From: Peptoniphilus lacrimalis DSM 7455
GTDB lineage: Bacteria; Bacillota; Clostridia; Tissierellales; Peptoniphilaceae
DNA length: 64,000 bases
Reading direction: 5' to 3'
NCBI RefSeq assembly: GCF_000378725.1
Contig: NZ_KB900367.1
Location: 186,001 to 250,000 of the forward strand
The translations under genes were made by a program, and so were the position numbers. Of this stretch, positions 48,169-63,621 are shown piece after piece; positions within the stretch are counted from its first letter, which is position 1, and the number at the start of each line of letters is the position of its first letter. The notes under the pieces were generated by a model. It did no database searches, had not been told where the DNA came from, and was given only the letters and a program-made list of their open reading frames with translations.

Positions 48169-48386
48169 CATATGAAGAAAAAGAAATTTATATTATAGAC
48201 CTAGAACAATTTAGAGATTTACAATGGTCACTTTCAAATGCAACAAATAATATAAACCAGACCGTAAAAGCAACTAATACAACGGGAGTCATTTATAAGA
48301 AAGATATAGATTATATGAGAGAAAAAATAGAGAAAATATCCAAGGAGTTGTGGGATGTGCATTCACTATTATTAAGGAGGGAATGA
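48148..48386 (+). pseudogene. Decayed mobC copy with internal deletion
   Basis: The reading frame matches the MobC at 54507 from EIYIIDLEQFRDLQWSLSNA to HSLLLRRE and its stop. It lacks a start codon and an in-frame block of 26 codons. The intact copy has GAAAAAGAAATTT at both edges of that block (54558-54570 and 54636-54648) and this copy has it once, so the deletion is explained by recombination between the short repeats. Confidence 0.82.
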
Positions 48387-51090: not shown

Positions 51091-52215
51091 GTGCCAGCAT
51101 TTAGAGATGAAAGTGGAAACAAGACTTGGTTTTGTAAATTTAATTATACCAACTGGAAAGGTGAAAAATTAACTAAGAAAAAACGCGGATTTTCAAGAAA
51201 AAAAGAAGCATTAAAATGGGAACAAGAATTTTTAAATCAACATTCTGAATCAATTGAGATGAGCTTTAGGGAGTTTTTTGAACTTTACAAGAGGGATAGA
51301 AAACCAAGAATAAGAGAAAATACTTGGAGGACAAAAGAAGCAATTGTAAATCAAAAAATACTTCCATATATTGGTGATTTAATGCTTAATGAGATTAATA
51401 ATGTAACCATCATTCAATGGCAAAATGAGCTTATGAAGATTAAGGATAAGAATGGGAAGAACTACTCTCCTACTTATTTGAGAACTATTCATGCCCAGTT
51501 ATCTAGTATCTTAAATCATGCTTGTAGGTACTACAATTTAAAAACTAATGTTGCTCGTGATGTCGGTTCTATGGGTGAAAAAGAAGCTGATGAAATGCTC
51601 TTTTGGACTCAAGACGAATACGAAAGATTTATAGAAGCTATAAAAGATAAACCTGAATCATTCTATGCTTTTGAACTTTTATATTGGTGTGGTCTTAGAA
51701 TGGGAGAATTATTAGCCTTAACAAAAGAGAAATTTGATTTTGAAAGGCATACATTAAAAATTGATGAATCTTTACAAAGAATCGATGGGAAAAATGTAAT
51801 AACTGCTCCTAAGACTAAAAAGAGTATAAGGACAGTAGTTATGCCTGAATTTTTAACTGAAGAGATTAAAGAATATATAGACAGTTTTTATAAGTTAAAA
51901 GCAAAAGACTTAATATTTAATTTCTCTAAGAGCTACCTACACCATGAAATGGATAGAGGATCTAAGAAATCTCAAGTAAAAAGAATTCGAATACACGATT
52001 TAAGGCATTCACATGTTTCGCTTCTAATTGAATTAGGATTTTCAGCAACGGCAATAGCTGATAGGGTTGGACATGAATCAATTGACATCACCTATAGGTA
52101 TGCTCATCTCTTCCCTAGTAAGCAAAAAGAAATGGCTCTGTCTTTAACACAAGTGAGAAATAATAAGGCAAATGATTGGAAAGATTTATTAGAAGAGGAT
52201 GATAAAGATGTTTAG
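51091..52215 (+). CDS. int: Tyrosine recombinase / integrase (Tn916-type)
   Basis: Site-specific recombinase of 374 residues. The N-terminus (FRDESGNKTWFCKFNYTNWK) is an arm-binding AP2-like domain, followed by a core-binding domain (about 60-165) and the catalytic domain with Arg in WCGLRMGELLAL, HxxR in IHDLRHSH, His in VGHESI and the nucleophile Tyr in TYRYAHLFP. Starts at GTG after AAAGGAGG. It presumably recombines at the guaA-end att sites reported here. Overlaps nothing; the MobC-like gene starts 8 bp before its stop. Confidence 0.95.
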   Translation: MPAFRDESGNKTWFCKFNYTNWKGEKLTKKKRGFSRKKEALKWEQEFLNQHSESIEMSFREFFELYKRDRKPRIRENTWRTKEAIVNQKILPYIGDLMLNEINNVTIIQWQNELMKIKDKNGKNYSPTYLRTIHAQLSSILNHACRYYNLKTNVARDVGSMGEKEADEMLFWTQDEYERFIEAIKDKPESFYAFELLYWCGLRMGELLALTKEKFDFERHTLKIDESLQRIDGKNVITAPKTKKSIRTVVMPEFLTEEIKEYIDSFYKLKAKDLIFNFSKSYLHHEMDRGSKKSQVKRIRIHDLRHSHVSLLIELGFSATAIADRVGHESIDITYRYAHLFPSKQKEMALSLTQVRNNKANDWKDLLEEDDKDV

Positions 52216-52653: not shown

Positions 52654-52731
52654 ATGGAAAACAAATATAAAACAAAAAAGAGATTAAATGGTTATAAAAA
52701 GAAAAGGAGTAAGCCTTATGACAGATTTTAA
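52654..52731 (+). CDS. Very small basic protein (25 residues)
   Basis: Frame MENKYKTKKRLNGYKKKRSK followed by PYDRF, with ACAGGAGGATAAA directly before the ATG, a stronger ribosome site than most in the island. It overlaps the start of the VapE-like gene by 14 bp, so it may be a leader cistron for coupled translation or a basic DNA/RNA-binding peptide. No family recognised. Confidence 0.45.
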   Translation: MENKYKTKKRLNGYKKKRSKPYDRF

Positions 52732-54178
52732 ATTAAAATTCCCGGAAATAGATCAGACTTATGCCTTTTTAGATTTACAAACTACAGATAAGGGGATGGT
52801 TAGACAAATTACTGGGAATATTGTAACAGCGATTTTAAATCCCAAATATTGTCAAAACCAAAAAATCATTGATGGACAAATATTCTTTGATAAATTTACC
52901 AATGAAATAAAATTCCAGGGGAAAATTATTGGAGAAAGAAATATAAAGGAAAATCAAATACGACTTTGGGATGATTCTTTAAATAATAGACTAGGCTTAG
53001 AGATAGAAAAACATTTTGGAATTAATTATAACACCAACAAAATGTGGGAAGCTATTCGATTTGTAGCTCATCAATATGAAGTGAGTCCGCCAAAGCAATA
53101 TCTTCAAAATTTAAAATGGAATGGAGATAAAAATGCCATTAGAAAACTTTTACCAAGGTATTTGGGAGCGGATGATACAGAACTTAACAATTGGATAATG
53201 GAACATATGATATTAGGTATGATAAAAAGAATTTTCAATCCAGGATCTAAGTTTGATGAGATGATTGTTTTAGTTGGGGGACAAGGTATAGGCAAATCGA
53301 CTTTTGCAAGATACTTGTCCATAACAGATGATTGGTTTTGTACAATTGAAAACATTCAAGGTAAGGATGCCGTCATGAACCTTATGGGTAAAACTGTCGT
53401 TGAAATTGAAGAATTTGTTGCTTTAAGAAATGCAAAATCGGCTAATGAAGCTAAATCTTTTTTATCAAAATTAAGCGATAGGATAAGAATACCCTACGAA
53501 AAATATGCAACAGATGTGCCTAGGACATGTATATTCATAGGCACATTAAATGAAAGAACTTTTCTTAATGACCATACTGGAGAAAGAAGATATTTGCCTG
53601 TTGAATGTAACCCGAATCAAAGAATAAGGACTATATATCCAGATAAAAATCACAATGAAAAACTTTCAGACAAAGAATATATGTCACGCATAAGAGAAGA
53701 TTTTAATCAGGCTCTAGCCTTGGGATATGAAATCTTTAAAAACAAGACTTATGCATGGACTATACCAAAAAATCTTTTAAAAGACTTGTATAAAGAACAA
53801 GAAAAGTTTAAATATCTAAACCCAGATGTGGAAGACATTAGGTATTTCTTAGAAGAATATAAGCCGAAAAGTGCAGATCCAAATATAACTTGTTTCAAAG
53901 AACTAACCATGCAAGGCTACCAAATAAAATCAAAATCTTTTTCAGAGATTATGGATAATTATTTCCAAGACTGGATTCCAATTAGGTCATCAAAGACCCA
54001 GAGAATTTCACCAAGTGGAGTCTCAATTCCAGTAAAACTATATTATGAAAAGAAAACAGAAAACAAAAATGACTTTATAGAAGTTGATAAGAATTTGTTG
54101 CCAGAAGAATGGCAAAAAGAAAATCAGTTAGAAATAGATACAGCAAAACAAGTGAAAGATACAAATGTAACTTTGTAA
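52718..54178 (+). CDS. VapE-family P-loop protein, probable replication initiator/helicase
   Basis: Protein of 486 residues of the virulence-associated E family, found in satellites and integrative elements as a primase-helicase-like replication protein. Walker A is VGGQGIGKST near residue 195, Walker B-like EIEEF, the sensor region GTLNERTFLND and the arginine finger-like GERRYLPVE follow. An upstream frame from 52688 exists, but AAAAGGAG places the start at 52718. It suggests the element replicates after excision. Confidence 0.85.
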   Translation: MTDFKLKFPEIDQTYAFLDLQTTDKGMVRQITGNIVTAILNPKYCQNQKIIDGQIFFDKFTNEIKFQGKIIGERNIKENQIRLWDDSLNNRLGLEIEKHFGINYNTNKMWEAIRFVAHQYEVSPPKQYLQNLKWNGDKNAIRKLLPRYLGADDTELNNWIMEHMILGMIKRIFNPGSKFDEMIVLVGGQGIGKSTFARYLSITDDWFCTIENIQGKDAVMNLMGKTVVEIEEFVALRNAKSANEAKSFLSKLSDRIRIPYEKYATDVPRTCIFIGTLNERTFLNDHTGERRYLPVECNPNQRIRTIYPDKNHNEKLSDKEYMSRIREDFNQALALGYEIFKNKTYAWTIPKNLLKDLYKEQEKFKYLNPDVEDIRYFLEEYKPKSADPNITCFKELTMQGYQIKSKSFSEIMDNYFQDWIPIRSSKTQRISPSGVSIPVKLYYEKKTENKNDFIEVDKNLLPEEWQKENQLEIDTAKQVKDTNVTL

Positions 54179-54506
54179 CCTGTAACCAATCGTTATAAAT
54201 CTTCTTAAATTAGGATTACATAAATTAATGGCTTGATAATAAGGGGCAAACACAGACTCTTAAAACAAGCTTGCCTAATTTTTGAAGTTTTTATTTTATA
54301 AGTTACAGTTACACTTATTAATTTCTATTTGGAAAATTATGGGGAATTAGATTAAAGACTTGTTATTAATAGCAAGCACAGTAAGTGAGTACCCACTTAC
54401 GAAAAAATCAAAAAATCAATAGTTTTTAAGGCTATATAATTTTATGATTTTTTCCTTGTTAGGGAGAACCCTAAGACCCCAAAAGATAAGTGAAAAGGAG
54501 AAATAT
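54179..54506. other. Intergenic region with candidate transfer origin
   Basis: No gene. GTAAGTG (54381-54387) pairs with CACTTAC (54394-54400), and TTAGGG (54459-54464) pairs with CCCTAA (54469-54474), just before mobC. The GTAAGTG-x-CCC arrangement recalls nick regions of mobilisable elements of the RSF1010/pIP501 type. A third imperfect repeat (GGCAA...TTGCC) lies near 54243-54271. Confidence 0.5.
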
Positions 54507-54869
54507 ATGGATAATAGAAAAAGAAATAATCAACTAAAAATATATTTAACAGATGAAGAAAAAGAAATTTTTGAAAAGAAAATGAAACTTGCAAACTTCA
54601 AAACAATGTCCCACTTTCTTAGAAAATGTGTATTAGAAAAAGAAATTTATATTGTAGACCTAGAACCATTTAGAGATCTTCAATGGTTACTTTCAAATGT
54701 AACAAATAATATAAACCAGATTGCAAAAGCTACTAATATGACTGGTGTTATTTACAAAAATGACATACAGGCTATCAGGCAAGACGTAGACAAGTTATCC
54801 AAAGAAATCTGGGATATTCACAGCTTATTATTAAAAAGAATTCAAAAAATACAAGAATATCAGGAGTAA
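54507..54869 (+). CDS. mobC: MobC relaxosome protein (intact)
   Basis: Protein of 120 residues with the MobC pattern: basic start NRKRNNQLKIYLTDEEKEIF, then FKTMSHFLRKC and EPFRDLQWLLSNVTNNINQIA. MobC proteins bind the transfer origin and help the relaxase nick DNA. AAGGAG precedes the ATG at 54507; an upstream frame from 54444 runs through the likely transfer origin. No relaxase follows, unusual for mobC. Three decayed copies of this gene lie at 48148, 57387 and 63558. Confidence 0.87.
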   Translation: MDNRKRNNQLKIYLTDEEKEIFEKKMKLANFKTMSHFLRKCVLEKEIYIVDLEPFRDLQWLLSNVTNNINQIAKATNMTGVIYKNDIQAIRQDVDKLSKEIWDIHSLLLKRIQKIQEYQE

Positions 54870-54875
54870 GAAAGA

Positions 54876-55124
54876 ATGAAAATTTATATGAATGAACAAG
54901 GATTATTGGAAAAAGAAAGAGAATTATGTTTAGGTTTAGGAGGCATTGAGGATTTTATTAAGGAACTAGACGCCATGAGAGATACCTTCCAGGAAGTACA
55001 AGATCGTTACGAGAATTTTGAGAAAGTTTATCACTCAGATATGAAAAATATGTTAGAGGAACTATTCAAGTTTAATCAAAGTTTTGTTAGAAATAATGAA
55101 ACTTTGATTGATAAAATCGAATAA
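54876..55124 (+). CDS. Small helical protein, unknown
   Basis: Acidic protein of 82 residues, mostly helical and probably coiled coil from residue 25 to the end (FIKELDAMRDTFQEVQDRYE). No family recognised. It follows mobC by 6 bp and shares its terminator, so it may belong to the relaxosome. The ribosome site is AGGAG about 10 bp upstream. Confidence 0.55.
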   Translation: MKIYMNEQGLLEKERELCLGLGGIEDFIKELDAMRDTFQEVQDRYENFEKVYHSDMKNMLEELFKFNQSFVRNNETLIDKIE

Positions 55125-55132
55125 ATAAACCG

Positions 55133-55160
55133 AGGTGTCGTAGAAACACGGCACCTTTTT
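55133..55160 (+). terminator. Terminator after the mobC pair
   Basis: Nine-base stem AGGTGTCGT / ACGGCACCT (one G-T pair), loop AGAAAC, then TTTTT. Confidence 0.88.
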
Positions 55161-55182: not shown

Positions 55183-55191
55183 TGGTATAAT
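55183..55191 (+). promoter_or_regulatory. Extended -10 promoter of the DUF4275-ApeA operon
   Basis: TGGTATAAT, a perfect extended -10, 44 bp before the DUF4275 start and directly after a terminator. No -35 match. It gives the defence pair its own transcript. Confidence 0.6.
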
Positions 55192-55234
55192 AATCTTTAG
55201 TAAGTTGAAGATGAAAACGCTACGGAGAATCTCT

Positions 55235-55606
55235 ATGAATTTTGAGAAAGAATGGATAAAACATTTTACAAAAGATGTCTCTAAAAAAGATTTAGATTTT
55301 AGAGTTAGAGATTCAGGTAATTTTATATGGCATGCTTTTTTGGATTTAATTGATAAGGGAAGTTACTTGGTCGGAAATGAAGCGAGAAAAACTTTTGACA
55401 AGGTAAATAAAGTAGGTCCAATTTATTTTTTCCCTTGGGATGAAAATAAAGTTTTTGAAAATAACATTGAAGAAATTACTGCAGACATGCTCGATAGATA
55501 TGACGAGGTATATCTTGTCGCTTCCGATTGGTCATGGACAAATATAAAAACGCATGAAGAAGAATTAGGACCTTATTTTTGCTCTAATGCAGAGAATCAT
55601 ATTTAG
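55235..55606 (+). CDS. DUF4275 family protein
   Basis: Protein of 123 residues with DUF4275 features in order: a start with EKEWIKHFTKDVSK, the FIWHAF motif near residue 30, GNEARKTFDKV, a YFFPWDE strand, ITADMLDRYDEVYLVASDWS and the C-terminal THEEELGPYF. The family is of unknown function. The start at 55235 has GGAGA 7 bp upstream. It precedes the ApeA-like gene by 9 bp on one transcript, which suggests a shared job in defence or its control; this is inference. Confidence 0.72.
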   Translation: MNFEKEWIKHFTKDVSKKDLDFRVRDSGNFIWHAFLDLIDKGSYLVGNEARKTFDKVNKVGPIYFFPWDENKVFENNIEEITADMLDRYDEVYLVASDWSWTNIKTHEEELGPYFCSNAENHI

Positions 55607-55615
55607 GAGGCTTAG

Positions 55616-57058
55616 ATGAGAAATATACAAAAATATGGCGGAACATGGAAATTTTTTGATAGTGAGAAAACTTTTCAAGGAGAACTGCATATTGATTCGG
55701 ATAAAAATTTTATTGTTCTTGAATTAATTATTCCAGCCAGTGATAGTAATCCAATGCCTAGACCACCTTATAAAGGAAAGATTCCATATATATGTGGCAC
55801 TTTATTTTCTGGAGCAAAAGTTTTGTTATATAAATGTGAAACGGGTAAAGAGCACACATATCTATTATCATATACACAACAAATTATTTACTCTGATTTT
55901 GCTTTCTGGGGGCTAGAAATAAAGTCTGAAGATGAGGTAATGTTTTCAAATGTTACCGTTGACTTTGGGGAGATAATAAATTGGTCTAGATTGTGCAAAT
56001 ATAACTGGGACTATTCCTCAAATTATGGTGTGAATTTGATTTGGGAACATGAAGATCCTGTTAATTTTAAATTTGGAGATGGTTTACTTATAAAATTTTA
56101 TCCTGTACAGGGAAGTATGGAAAGCAATTCATATAGTAAGGAGATTATTGCACGTCAAAGTGTTCTTGTAGACTTTGTTTATAATCAACCTAAAGAGATT
56201 GATGAAATACTAGATGATATTTTATCTATTCAGTATCTTATAGGCCTTGGTATTGATAATGAGGTAGTTATTGAGAATATTAAATATCAACACCCAACAA
56301 TATATTCAGAATTTGAAAACAAAGATGGATCTGTTACTAAACATTTTTTAAAAGCTGATTTGTTGTTTGGAAAGGGAGAGAAAAAATCTACTGCAAGTAT
56401 TAGACCGTTCAAATTTATCTTTACTTTAAGAGATATAAATGATCAAAATATTTTTTTAAATTGGAATAATAGATATTCTAAACTTAAACCAGTCTTGGAT
56501 CTTTACTTTACTGTTTTTTCTAATAAAATTACAGCACCAGAAGTCTTGTTTTTAAACTTGGTTCAAGCTTTAGAGACTTTTCATGCAAGATTTATCACTG
56601 ATGATGTAAAAGATTACATTACTAGAGTTGAAAAAATTACTTATAATTTTTGTAGGGGTAATGAGAATCAGAATCAATGGCACGATTTTTTACTTGATGA
56701 GCATCAGCAAAATAGTAAAAAGATACATCTAAGAAGTCGCTTGGCTGATTTAATTTTTGCTGAAGGAATATTACCCTTCTGGCCTAGTTCTTACAATAAA
56801 GTAGAATATATCAGTAAGGTAGTAGATACGAGAAATTACTATACTCATTATAATATCGAAAAAGAAGAGAAGGCACTTTCAAGAGAAGAATTGCCTTTAG
56901 TAAATGCTGAACTAAGGATATTACTACAGTTCCATATTCTAAAGATTCTAGGTTTTTCTACTGACGAATTAAGGAAGAAAACAGTAGAAGAGATGAACAG
57001 GCTTAATGATATTAAATTTTTACAAGAAGGAACTCATGAGATAAAAGAGAGACTGTGA
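55616..57058 (+). CDS. ApeA-type HEPN anti-phage protein
   Basis: Protein of 480 residues. The N-terminal half is beta-rich (GGTWKFFDSEKTFQGELHI) like the ApeA N-terminal domain, and the C-terminal part from about 300 is a HEPN domain with the RNase motif R-x4-H in TRNYYTHYN (Arg406, His411). ApeA proteins are single-gene anti-phage systems thought to cut RNA after infection. AGGAGG precedes the ATG. No signal peptide or membrane segment. It is preceded by DUF4275 and followed by a broken regulator. Assignment rests on domain order and motif; no search was possible. Confidence 0.75.
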   Translation: MRNIQKYGGTWKFFDSEKTFQGELHIDSDKNFIVLELIIPASDSNPMPRPPYKGKIPYICGTLFSGAKVLLYKCETGKEHTYLLSYTQQIIYSDFAFWGLEIKSEDEVMFSNVTVDFGEIINWSRLCKYNWDYSSNYGVNLIWEHEDPVNFKFGDGLLIKFYPVQGSMESNSYSKEIIARQSVLVDFVYNQPKEIDEILDDILSIQYLIGLGIDNEVVIENIKYQHPTIYSEFENKDGSVTKHFLKADLLFGKGEKKSTASIRPFKFIFTLRDINDQNIFLNWNNRYSKLKPVLDLYFTVFSNKITAPEVLFLNLVQALETFHARFITDDVKDYITRVEKITYNFCRGNENQNQWHDFLLDEHQQNSKKIHLRSRLADLIFAEGILPFWPSSYNKVEYISKVVDTRNYYTHYNIEKEEKALSREELPLVNAELRILLQFHILKILGFSTDELRKKTVEEMNRLNDIKFLQEGTHEIKERL

Positions 57059-57101
57059 GTTAAAAAGCGTGAATAATAATATAGCAATGAAAGAGAAAAA
57101 T

Positions 57102-57320
57102 ATGGCATTTTATTACAGCAAACTTTGAAAGTTGCTTGACGAGAAGAAAATGTATAAAGAAGACTTAAGACTAGATACAGGGATGTCCTCAGCAACTCTT
57201 CATAAGTTAGGTAAGAATGAGATTGTTAGCATGGATGTTTTAGCAAGAATTTGTGAAAGTCTTAAATGTGATGAGGGAGATATTGTTAGCTATATAAATG
57301 AAGAGGGTGTGTCAGAATGA
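57102..57320 (+). pseudogene. XRE-type regulator with in-frame stop
   Basis: The frame reads MAFYYSKL, then TGA (57126-57128), then KLLDEKKMYKEDLRLDTGMS and a complete Cro/C1-type helix-turn-helix ending INEEGVSE. Relatives, including the one at 62883 (KLWKKLIDEKMNK), have Trp at the stop, so TGG became TGA. Restart at TTG 57132 is possible and would lose the first nine residues only. The product would be a small DNA-binding protein downstream of the ApeA operon. Confidence 0.75.
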
Positions 57321-57346
57321 TTAAATTCTGATACACTCTCTTTTTT
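57303..57346 (+). terminator. Strong terminator overlapping the XRE stop codon
   Basis: Sixteen-base stem starting GAGGGTGTGTCAGAAT and closing ATTCTGATACACTCTC, loop GATTAA, then TTTTTT. Likely also ends the DUF4275-ApeA transcript. Confidence 0.9.
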
Positions 57347-57420
57347 ATTTGATAGGTTGTACACTTAAAAGCGACATATAGTATAAAATAAATTTAAAAA
57401 TCAACTAAAAATATATTTAA
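57344..57420. repeat. Module upstream of mobC, copy 2
   Basis: Near-identical to 48091-48168: TTTTATTTGATAGGTTGTAC, TTAAAAGCGACAT and TAGTATAAAATAAATTT, again directly after a terminator and before a mobC frame. Confidence 0.7.
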
Positions 57421-57734
57421 CAGATGAAGAAAAAGAAATTTTTGAAAAGAAAATGAAACTTGCAAATTGCAAAACCATGTCCCACTTTCTTAGGAAATGT
57501 GTATTAGAAAAAGAAATTTATATTGTAGACCTAGAACCATTTAGAAATCTCCAATGGCTACTTTCTAATGCAACAAACAATATTAATCAGATTGTAAAAG
57601 CAACTAATGCAACTGGTGTTATTTACAAAAATGAAATTGAATCTATGAATAATCAGATAGAAAAATTATCAAAAGAAATATGGCAGATCCATTCCCTACT
57701 TCTTAATAAATCAAAAGAAAGTTCTGGTGATTAG
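57387..57734 (+). pseudogene. mobC copy without a start codon
   Basis: The frame matches the intact MobC from NQLKIYLTDEEKEIFEKKMK through FLRKC and HSLLLNKSKESS to the stop, but the first residues are replaced by NKF from the repeated module and no ATG, GTG or TTG occurs before residue 23 (57453). Translation from 57453 would give 93 residues lacking the first helix. A truncated relaxase follows two bases later, the normal mobC-mobA order. Confidence 0.72.
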
Positions 57735-57735
57735 T

Positions 57736-57975
57736 ATGGCAATTATAAAAACACATCCAATAAAATCAACTTTAAATTTGGCAATAGATTACATTACCGA
57801 GGGTGAAAAAACTGATGAAAAAATTTTAGTATCTTCATTCAAATGTCATACATATATTGACCATATTCAGTTTATGAAAACACGAGAAGATAATGATATT
57901 AATGGTTCAGTTTTGTCTGGGATTCTAATACAATCTTTTATTTTAGGGTGGTTTTGTGCTATAGAAATGCTGTGA
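57736..57975 (+). pseudogene. Relaxase (MobA/VirD2-type) N-terminal fragment
   Basis: The first 55 residues read like a relaxase start: MAIIKTHPIKSTLNLAIDYI, then GEKTDEKILVSSFKC and HIQFMKTREDND. After LIQSF the sequence turns to unrelated FILGWFCAIEML and stops at residue 79, without the active-site histidine triad expected further on. The rest of the gene is absent; the ABC/two-component cassette begins at this point. No other relaxase is visible, so the island cannot mobilise itself. Confidence 0.82.
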
Positions 57976-63365: not shown

Positions 63366-63440
63366 AAATTAAAAACTTTGTAAAATCAACGGTTGCAGAA
63401 GATAAAAAACTGTAACTGGGATTAAAATGGGAACATTTAT

Positions 63441-63525
63441 AAAAAAGAATAAATTGAATAATAGTTCCAAGTGGTTTACATTTGGACAAAAAATTAGACC
63501 GTAGTTTCAAGCTGCGGTCTTTTTG
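63441..63525 (+). repeat. Terminator-bearing repeat, copy 3
   Basis: From AAAAAGAATAAATTGAATAA through the TCCAAGTG / CATTTGGA hairpin to the terminator GACCGTAG / CTGCGGTC with TTTTT (63497-63524). One stem pair differs from copy 2 but remains a T-G pair. It lies 75 bp right of attR, as copy 1 lies 40 bp right of attL. Confidence 0.8.
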
Positions 63526-63557
63526 CCTACATATTACGAGGATTAATTTATTTTGAC

Positions 63558-63621
63558 ATCTCCAATGGTTACTTTCAAATGCTACGAATAATATAAACCA
63601 GATCGCAAAAGCAACTAATAC
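63558..63621 (+). pseudogene. mobC scrap
   Basis: About 64 bp matching the middle of mobC (CTCCAATGGTTACTTTCAAA, then AATATAAACCAGATCGCAAA and AGCAACTAATAC). Both ends are cut; it runs straight into the macro-domain fragment. Confidence 0.75.

What the first reader, a model, noticed from the sequence alone, without database searches (positions are those of the whole stretch)
55183..57346. DUF4275-ApeA pair as a possible two-gene anti-phage system
An ApeA-type HEPN protein (R-x4-H at Arg406/His411) sits 9 bp after a DUF4275 gene, with its own extended -10 promoter, terminators on both sides, and mobile-element genes around it. ApeA is described as a single-gene system; a tightly coupled DUF4275 partner could be an activator, sensor or antitoxin. 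I do not know of a described function for DUF4275.
Basis: partly seen in the sequence, partly recalled or inferred. Interest (0 to 1): 0.75.

Follow-up and report, generated by a model that had tools for sequence, protein, structure and literature searches.

The report
Mobile ApeA defence gene with partner
A bacterium related to Anaerococcus carries, on a small mobile element, a probable RNA-cutting anti-virus gene (ApeA family) with a small uncharacterised gene in front of it; the two have spread together between species, but elsewhere each was found without the other, so a true two-gene system is unproven.

Summary
In detail: 55235-55606 is DUF4275, and 9 bp later 55616-57058 is an ApeA-family HEPN protein (Pfam ApeA_NTD1 + HEPN_Apea; PADLOC PDC-S58) with an intact R406-N-x3-H411 motif. 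The terminators and a promoter-like site are there. The adjacency is not confined to this strain: it occurs in 7 of 249 genomes of the order. But six of the 7 are one recently spread cassette (99.6-99.9% identical over the pair); the seventh copy (92.5%) has both genes broken. No other pair was found: the 13 other ApeA genomes of the order have no DUF4275 match, and 0 of 26 other DUF4275 genomes have HEPN_Apea. One cassette copy has a frameshifted DUF4275 beside an intact ApeA (possibly a sequencing error). DUF4275 elsewhere is fused to tRNA methyltransferases TrmB and TrmD and to a 2'-5' RNA-ligase-like phosphoesterase, and sits beside RtcB in a few genomes; no held paper contains the word DUF4275. 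Best reading: a mobile, autonomous ApeA defence gene with a co-transcribed, non-essential DUF4275 modulator. A new two-gene variant of a known kind; the partner's function is unproven.

The parts
51091..52215 (+). tyrosine integrase of the mobile element
   Evidence: PF00589 E 3e-21
52730..54178 (+). VapE-like protein of the element
   Evidence: PF05272 E 6e-56
54507..54869 (+). NikA/MobC-like gene, copy 1, left edge of the shared cassette
   Evidence: PF21983 E 1e-13; 84% identical to copy 2 over 346 columns; identity to other genomes rises to about 100% within it
54876..55124 (+). 82-aa ORF of unknown function inside the cassette, before the terminator
   Evidence: ORF; no family over a curated cut-off; no PADLOC match
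55132..55160 (+). intrinsic terminator that separates the pair from the upstream gene
   Evidence: fold -14.6 kcal/mol, z -4.7; stem readable in L055
55163..55191 (+). promoter-like site with extended -10
   Evidence: TGnTATAAT kept in 5 of 5 cassette copies and in L055
55235..55606 (+). DUF4275 protein, 123 aa, acidic (pI 4.8)
   Evidence: PF14101; all five invariant family positions kept, but T53, W99 and N103 depart from the common A, F and Y; pI
55616..57058 (+). ApeA-family HEPN protein, 480 aa (PDC-S58 type)
   Evidence: PF18862, PF18739; PADLOC PDC-S58 E 4e-63, Cas13-ApeA E 6e-30
56831..56848 (+). HEPN catalytic motif R406-N-Y-Y-T-H411
   Evidence: R406, N407 and H411 invariant in 15 ApeA proteins; motif printed
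57132..57320 (+). Cro/C1-type HTH ORF after ApeA; the frame upstream of it is interrupted by TGA at 57126-57128
   Evidence: PF13443 E 2e-15; interrupted in the window and 5 of 5 cassette copies, open in L055
57300..57343 (+). intrinsic terminator after the operon
57402..57734 (+). MobC-like gene, copy 2 (5' part missing), right edge of the shared cassette in 3 of 5 copies
   Evidence: weak NikA-like/MobC matches below cut-off; 84% identical to copy 1
57727..57975 (+). relaxase N-terminal fragment
   Evidence: no Pfam match itself; 76% identical over 74 residues to the relaxase of L179, which is PF03432 E 6e-38

Best explanation
A mobile anti-phage cargo cassette. ApeA is an autonomous HEPN RNase effector: its beta-rich N-terminal domain would sense an infection signal and its HEPN domain, as a dimer, would then cut cellular RNA, probably tRNA, and stop growth. 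DUF4275 is made from the same mRNA just before it and acts as an accessory, non-essential modulator. Most likely it is a protein-binding, immunity-like domain that tempers the RNase or couples it to tRNA enzymes, not an obligate antitoxin or activator. Shown here: gene identities, intact HEPN motif, operon anatomy, spread of the two genes together, no pair outside this lineage in the samples searched, DUF4275's links to tRNA and RNA-repair enzymes. Inferred: common mRNA, RNase activity, target, trigger, and every function of DUF4275.
For: Both ApeA domains and the invariant R406/N407/H411. ApeA genes without DUF4275 are the rule: 13 of 20 ApeA genomes of the order have no DUF4275 match, and PADLOC's best model is a PDC-S type, which by recall means a one-gene candidate. 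The pair is 99.6-99.9% identical in 5 other genomes, while the left flank drops to 89-98% in most bins. Two of three related MobC-relaxase elements in the same genome have other defence-type genes beside them: a full-length PDC-S53 match next to MobC and a DrmMII-type methyltransferase; the third was not scanned. DUF4275 varies more than ApeA between cassette copies: 6 variable sites in 372 nt (5 amino-acid-changing, 1 silent) against 3 in 1443 (2 and 1), Fisher p 0.003. Besides the window, ApeA is open in 5 of 5 cassette copies, DUF4275 in 4 of 5. Immunity-like fold hint: AlphaFold model pLDDT 91; the best match in the second look is 5t86 chain I, from a CDI complex, Z 6.4, rmsd 3.5, 96 residues aligned, next row Z 3.7; that chain I is the immunity protein is my reading of its letter. 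Mostly acidic family: 80% of 59 members with pI under 6.
Against: The pair is kept together in 7 of 7 genomes that have this ApeA lineage, which an idle passenger would not require. The frameshift in one DUF4275 copy may be a sequencing error. The fold match is weak (Foldseek best E 0.08; Z under 8 can be chance). The substitution counts are tiny, and the six copies are not independent. No activity was measured here.
Confidence: 0.5

Rival explanations
1. DUF4275 is an obligate partner (antitoxin or activator) and the cassette is a true two-gene system.
For: Upstream small gene, 9 bp gap, one promoter-like site, AGGAGG overlapping the stop codon; gene order kept in the 92%-identical copy; pair kept in 7 of 7 genomes of this ApeA lineage; weak immunity-like fold hint.
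Against: No pair outside one lineage: 4 of 97 DUF4275 loci have an ApeA-like ORF, and these four are cassette copies; 0 of 26 other DUF4275 genomes have HEPN_Apea (positive control 10 of 10). Intact ApeA beside a frameshifted DUF4275 in one genome. Faster change in DUF4275.
Confidence: 0.2
2. DUF4275 is an unrelated passenger caught between terminator and ApeA; it has its own job, for example in tRNA upkeep or as an orphan immunity gene.
For: DUF4275 is mostly found without ApeA among mixed genes. Between cassette copies its changes are 5 amino-acid-changing to 1 silent, close to the ratio of sites 303:66 expected without selection. One frameshifted copy. It departs from the family at three well-conserved positions (T53, W99, N103).
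Against: It shares a promoter-like site with ApeA, has stayed adjacent since the split from the 92% copy, and keeps all five invariant family positions.
Confidence: 0.25
3. The whole cassette is decaying cargo without current function.
For: The downstream HTH frame is interrupted in the window and 5 of 5 cassette copies, the relaxase is a fragment, and the seventh copy has both genes broken.
Against: ApeA is intact and nearly invariant in 6 genomes (3 variable sites in 1443 nt), though recent spread alone could explain that.
Confidence: 0.05

Closest known systems
ApeA anti-phage system (Gao et al. 2020, recalled; family named in PMC3710099, passages seen; also mentioned in PMC10952713 and PMC7699616, passages seen)
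   Same: ApeA N-terminal domain 1 plus Apea-type HEPN with the R-N-x3-H motif
   Different: Described as one gene (recalled); here a DUF4275 gene precedes it in the same apparent operon. Activity and trigger untested.
PDC-S58 (PADLOC candidate; listed for Streptococcus thermophilus ST55 in a table of PMC11514479, one passage seen)
   Same: Best PADLOC match, residues 6-469 of 480, E 4e-63
   Different: One-gene candidate by its name (recalled); no PADLOC model matched DUF4275
Type IX retron, a HEPN RNase held inactive by partners (PMC13405049, abstract and passages seen)
   Same: HEPN RNase effector encoded with accessory proteins
   Different: No reverse transcriptase or winged-helix match among the ten proteins scanned here; the type IX HEPN lacks the canonical motif that is present here
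HEPN toxin-antitoxin pairs such as RnlA-RnlB (PMC3710099, passages seen)
   Same: HEPN protein with a small gene in the same operon
   Different: RnlA-RnlB was not compared by sequence here; antitoxin action of DUF4275 is unproven and the pair is not general
CDI complex of E. coli A0 34/86, PDB 5t86 chain I (taken to be the CdiI immunity protein; the row does not say)
   Same: Similar predicted fold, Z 6.4 over 96 residues
   Different: 8% identity in that alignment; not among the sequence matches; the longest ORF in 48-64 kb is 835 aa, so no CdiA-size gene is near

Membership tests
ApeA | ApeA N-terminal domain (PF18862) above cut-off | tested here: met
   159.8 bits against 25.5
ApeA | Apea-like HEPN domain (PF18739) above cut-off | tested here: met
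   74.3 bits against 24.4
ApeA | HEPN catalytic R-x4-6-H motif | tested here: met
   R406, N407, H411 invariant in 15 ApeA proteins
ApeA | protects against phage through HEPN-dependent RNA cleavage | not testable with these tools
   needs a plaque assay and RNA analysis
ApeA | activation by deoxydinucleotides (title of a 2026 preprint, seen only as a reference in PMC13405049) | not testable with these tools
   preprint not held
DUF4275 (PF14101) | profile score above cut-off and invariant positions | tested here: met
   49.4 bits against 27; W32, F35, A50, W101, T102, invariant in 59 members, are kept; T53, W99 and N103 depart from residues held by 54, 54 and 57 of 59
Type II toxin-antitoxin pair | small gene first, second gene close behind on the same strand | tested here: met
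   gene order and 9 bp gap, promoter-like site and terminators outside; ApeA at 480 aa is longer than usual toxins (recalled)
Type II toxin-antitoxin pair | toxin does not persist without its antitoxin | tested here: inconclusive
   one copy has intact ApeA with frameshifted DUF4275, possibly a sequencing error; other ApeA genes live without DUF4275
Conserved DUF4275-ApeA two-gene system | adjacency in independent lineages | tested here: not met
   only one cassette lineage plus a 92%-identical decayed copy in the samples searched
CDI immunity (CdiI) fold | same fold as a CdiI protein | tested here: inconclusive
   Z 6.4, 96 of 123 residues; Foldseek nothing at E 0.001 or below

The most novel reading that the evidence does not exclude
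DUF4275 is a shared module of tRNA surveillance and repair: it is fused to TrmB, TrmD and a 2'-5' RNA-ligase-like phosphoesterase and lies beside RtcB in some genomes. In this cassette it has been recruited to an ApeA HEPN RNase, so that the pair forms a two-gene variant in which a tRNA-linked, immunity-like protein sets the threshold or target of the RNase.
Probability: 0.17. Interest if true: 0.7.

Novelty: new variant of a known kind. Interest (0 to 1): 0.42.

Why it matters
If DUF4275 tunes ApeA, a defence gene thought to work alone has a partner, and a first function for DUF4275 becomes testable. Apart from ApeA, the fusion of DUF4275 to two different tRNA methyltransferases and an RNA-ligase-like phosphoesterase, and its place beside RtcB in a few genomes, give the first lead I know of on what this uncharacterised domain does. 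The natural set of copies (intact pair, frameshifted DUF4275 with intact ApeA, decayed pair) makes the dispensability question directly testable.

Tried and rejected
Rejected: start at ATG 55163 (inside the promoter-like site; frame closed in L055). Pair in phages or plasmids: tblastn of each protein against phages gave nothing. Plasmids gave 9 distant ApeA records and one DUF4275 record, which is a TrmB fusion. Viral contigs: none for either single protein; two DUF4275 loci from alignment A1, neither with an ApeA-like ORF. Direct tRNA binding by DUF4275: weakened, because window DUF4275 is acidic (pI 4.8, net -9) and most of the family is. RtcB as helper in the pair's hosts: no match in 7 of 7 pair genomes (the search rings in 9 of 14 control genomes). 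PDB by sequence: no ApeA match; only weak, unconvincing ones for DUF4275, among them the acidic protein MsyB at E 0.81, not pursued beyond one paper search. ApeA fold: model pLDDT 76; no Foldseek match at E 0.001 or below; the VIA rows were mostly tail-tube, Hcp and PilZ-like beta barrels over part of the N-terminal region, too generic to use. DUF4275 against viral structures: nothing at E 0.001 or below.

Limits. Neighbour clustering and neighbour lists use a crude gene caller; 19 of 82 loci dropped out of the clustering because it did not keep their DUF4275 frame, so only neighbours checked by profile or BLAST are named. RtcB enrichment (5 loci against 0.38 expected) assumes 2.5-Mb genomes with one copy and treats loci as independent; three of the five are near relatives; the BLAST behind it also covered 15 further loci. 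The 97 loci are not all distinct genomes (L074 and L110 come from contigs of the same length). Five of the 26 genomes have only a DUF4275 match below the family cut-off, as have 2 of the 15 DUF4275 genomes; 2 of the 20 ApeA genomes are below theirs. The substitution comparison rests on 9 sites. Papers: no held paper contains DUF4275; one search lists five papers with ApeA, HEPN and phage; searches added no paper on ApeA's mechanism; 5T86 is in no held paper together with CdiA.
Full report
Observation. The two genes are as described. DUF4275 is at 55235-55606 (PF14101, E 7e-13) and ApeA at 55616-57058 (PF18862 E 1e-46, PF18739 E 2e-20). PADLOC's best match for ApeA is PDC-S58 over residues 6-469 (E 4e-63), with Cas13-ApeA the other name (E 6e-30); DUF4275 has no PADLOC match, and neither protein has an NCBIfam match. 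The start of DUF4275 is most likely ATG 55235: a GGAG lies 7 nt before it, the longer frame from 55163 begins inside the promoter-like site, and that frame is closed by a stop in copy L055. ApeA follows after 9 bp, and its AGGAGG overlaps the DUF4275 stop codon. The upstream terminator (z -4.7) and the downstream one (z -7.7) fold well. The promoter is a consensus match only, of a kind no commoner here than in shuffles, but its -10 region is kept in 5 of 5 cassette copies and in L055.

Is the HEPN site real? In an alignment of 15 divergent ApeA proteins (16-25% identity to the window protein), R406, N407, H411 and W283 are invariant. So the catalytic motif is intact and conserved across the family.

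How far does the pair reach? In an even sample of 398 genomes of the phylum, DUF4275 occurs in 8 and ApeA_NTD1 in 5 (E 0.001 or better); only the own genome has both. In 249 genomes of the order, ApeA_NTD1 occurs in 20 and DUF4275 in 15. Both occur in 7, always adjacent; 13 ApeA genomes have no DUF4275 match and 8 DUF4275 genomes have no ApeA_NTD1 match. One pair genome (G460) has a second ApeA gene elsewhere without DUF4275. In 391 genomes of the class, DUF4275 occurs in 13. Of the 26 genomes across these three samples that have a DUF4275 match but no pair, 0 have HEPN_Apea (five of the 26 have only a sub-cut-off DUF4275 match); the same search rings in 10 of 10 ApeA genomes given as control. 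A one-pattern scan of genome contigs found 253 DUF4275 relatives and kept the best 80; four of these are named Anaerococcus genomes that carry the pair: A. obesiensis ph10, A. lactolyticus ATCC 51172, A. vaginimassiliensis and A. vaginalis PH9. Of 97 DUF4275 loci examined with an ApeA profile (82), only those four have an ApeA-like ORF. In 18 other ApeA loci, not all with an intact gene, I saw no common upstream partner by eye.

A mobile cassette. The pair region is 99.6-99.9% identical in five other genomes of the family, from two genera other than the window's (numbers them g269, which holds the Anaerococcus genomes, and g271), and 92.5% identical in a sixth genome of a further genus. In 200-bp bins, identity to these five is 96-100% in the bin at 54.6 kb and 98-100% from 54.8 to 57.4 kb. 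Left of it (49.6-54.6 kb) it is 89-99.5%, mostly 91-98%. Right of it three copies (L051, L052, L053) drop to 82-98% within 57.4-58.2 kb, but L050 stays near 100% to about 60.2 kb and L054 to about 58.4 kb. So the left boundary, in MobC copy 1, is shared by all five, and the right boundary, at MobC copy 2, is seen in three of five. The two MobC-like copies are 84% identical direct repeats, so recombination in MobC may have moved the unit (inference). The own genome has three further MobC-relaxase elements (relaxase PF03432, E 1e-34 or better) and no second DUF4275 or ApeA match. One has a 908-aa PDC-S53-type gene directly upstream of MobC (1227.7 bits); another has a DrmMII-type methyltransferase downstream of the relaxase; the cargo of the third was not scanned. 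Defence-type cargo thus recurs on these elements.

State of the copies. Besides the window, ApeA is open in all five near-identical copies and DUF4275 in four. In A. vaginalis PH9 it is frameshifted by one missing base in a T run, which may be a sequencing error. In the 92% copy (L055) DUF4275 ends early and ApeA is interrupted. Against the window, the five copies show 6 variable sites in DUF4275 in 372 nt (5 amino-acid-changing, 1 silent) and 3 in ApeA in 1443 (2 and 1); Fisher p 0.003. Against L055 the counts are 27 changing and 10 silent for DUF4275, and 43 and 52 for ApeA; per site this is a ratio of about 0.6 against 0.2, my arithmetic. DUF4275 is thus less constrained than ApeA, but the numbers are small and L055 is decayed.

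What is DUF4275? No paper in the library contains the word. The window protein keeps the five positions invariant in 59 members but departs at three well-conserved ones (T53, W99, N103). Of 80 open DUF4275 ORFs, 19 are C-terminal extensions of TrmB (by BLAST; two checked by Pfam, and a plasmid case). Others are fused to TrmD (L163), to a 2'-5' RNA-ligase-like phosphoesterase (L126, L149), to a metallo-beta-lactamase domain (L164) and to DMP19 (L108). Most of the rest look stand-alone. Three lie between a Band_7 gene and RtcB (L106, L109, L116), and two more have RtcB within 0.9 kb (L141, L154), all five RtcB confirmed by Pfam, against about 0.4 expected under a simple assumption. One overlaps a HisS gene by 4 bp (L117). 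These links point to tRNA upkeep; not all fusions do (metallo-beta-lactamase, DMP19), and the pair's own seven genomes have no RtcB match. The AlphaFold model is confident (pLDDT 91). Its best PDB row in a second look is chain I of a CDI complex (5t86, Z 6.4, rmsd 3.5, 96 residues; next Z 3.7), which I take to be the immunity protein; Foldseek itself has nothing at E 0.001 or below. This is a weak hint of an immunity-protein fold. The family is mostly acidic, which fits protein binding better than RNA binding.

How it probably works. ApeA is most simply an autonomous HEPN RNase effector; a 2026 preprint title says that deoxydinucleotides activate ApeA (seen only as a reference in PMC13405049; the preprint is not held). 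DUF4275, presumably on the same mRNA, is best read as an accessory that tempers the RNase or links it to tRNA. The obligate-partner reading remains possible but loses support from the lack of independent pairs, the frameshifted copy and its faster change. Only a plaque and toxicity assay with each gene alone can decide.

Novelty. The ApeA gene is a new member of a known family. The DUF4275-ApeA operon is a two-gene arrangement that my searches did not find in print (open-licence papers only). The tRNA-enzyme links of DUF4275 may be the more interesting lead.

Noticed in passing
L114, L142, L163, L126, L149, L035: DUF4275 is a C-terminal extension of TrmB (19 of 80 open ORFs, plus a Pusillibacter plasmid), TrmD and a 2'-5' RNA-ligase-like phosphoesterase: a lead to the function of an uncharacterised domain.
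   Followed up: partly
L106, L109, L116 (also L141, L154): DUF4275 sits between a Band_7/SPFH gene and the RNA ligase RtcB in three Clostridia MAGs from goat colon, and RtcB is within 0.9 kb of it in two more genomes.
   Followed up: partly
L179 (own genome contig 17) and L178 (contig 2): Other MobC-relaxase elements of the same genome have defence-type genes beside them: a 908-aa PDC-S53 match and a DrmMII-type methyltransferase.
   Followed up: partly
L085:5144-5806, L084:6540-7022, L056:4734-5699: Genes directly upstream of other ApeA genes match Csx27, RexB and Mrr-type REase models weakly; different ApeA genes may have different accessory genes.
   Followed up: no
window 57126-57320: The Cro/C1-type HTH frame after ApeA is interrupted by TGA in the window and all five cassette copies but open in the older copy L055.
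   Followed up: partly
window 48176-48375, 54494-54835, 57399-57740, 63402-63620: Repeated fragments related to the MobC region around this locus suggest a mosaic of several mobilizable elements.
   Followed up: no
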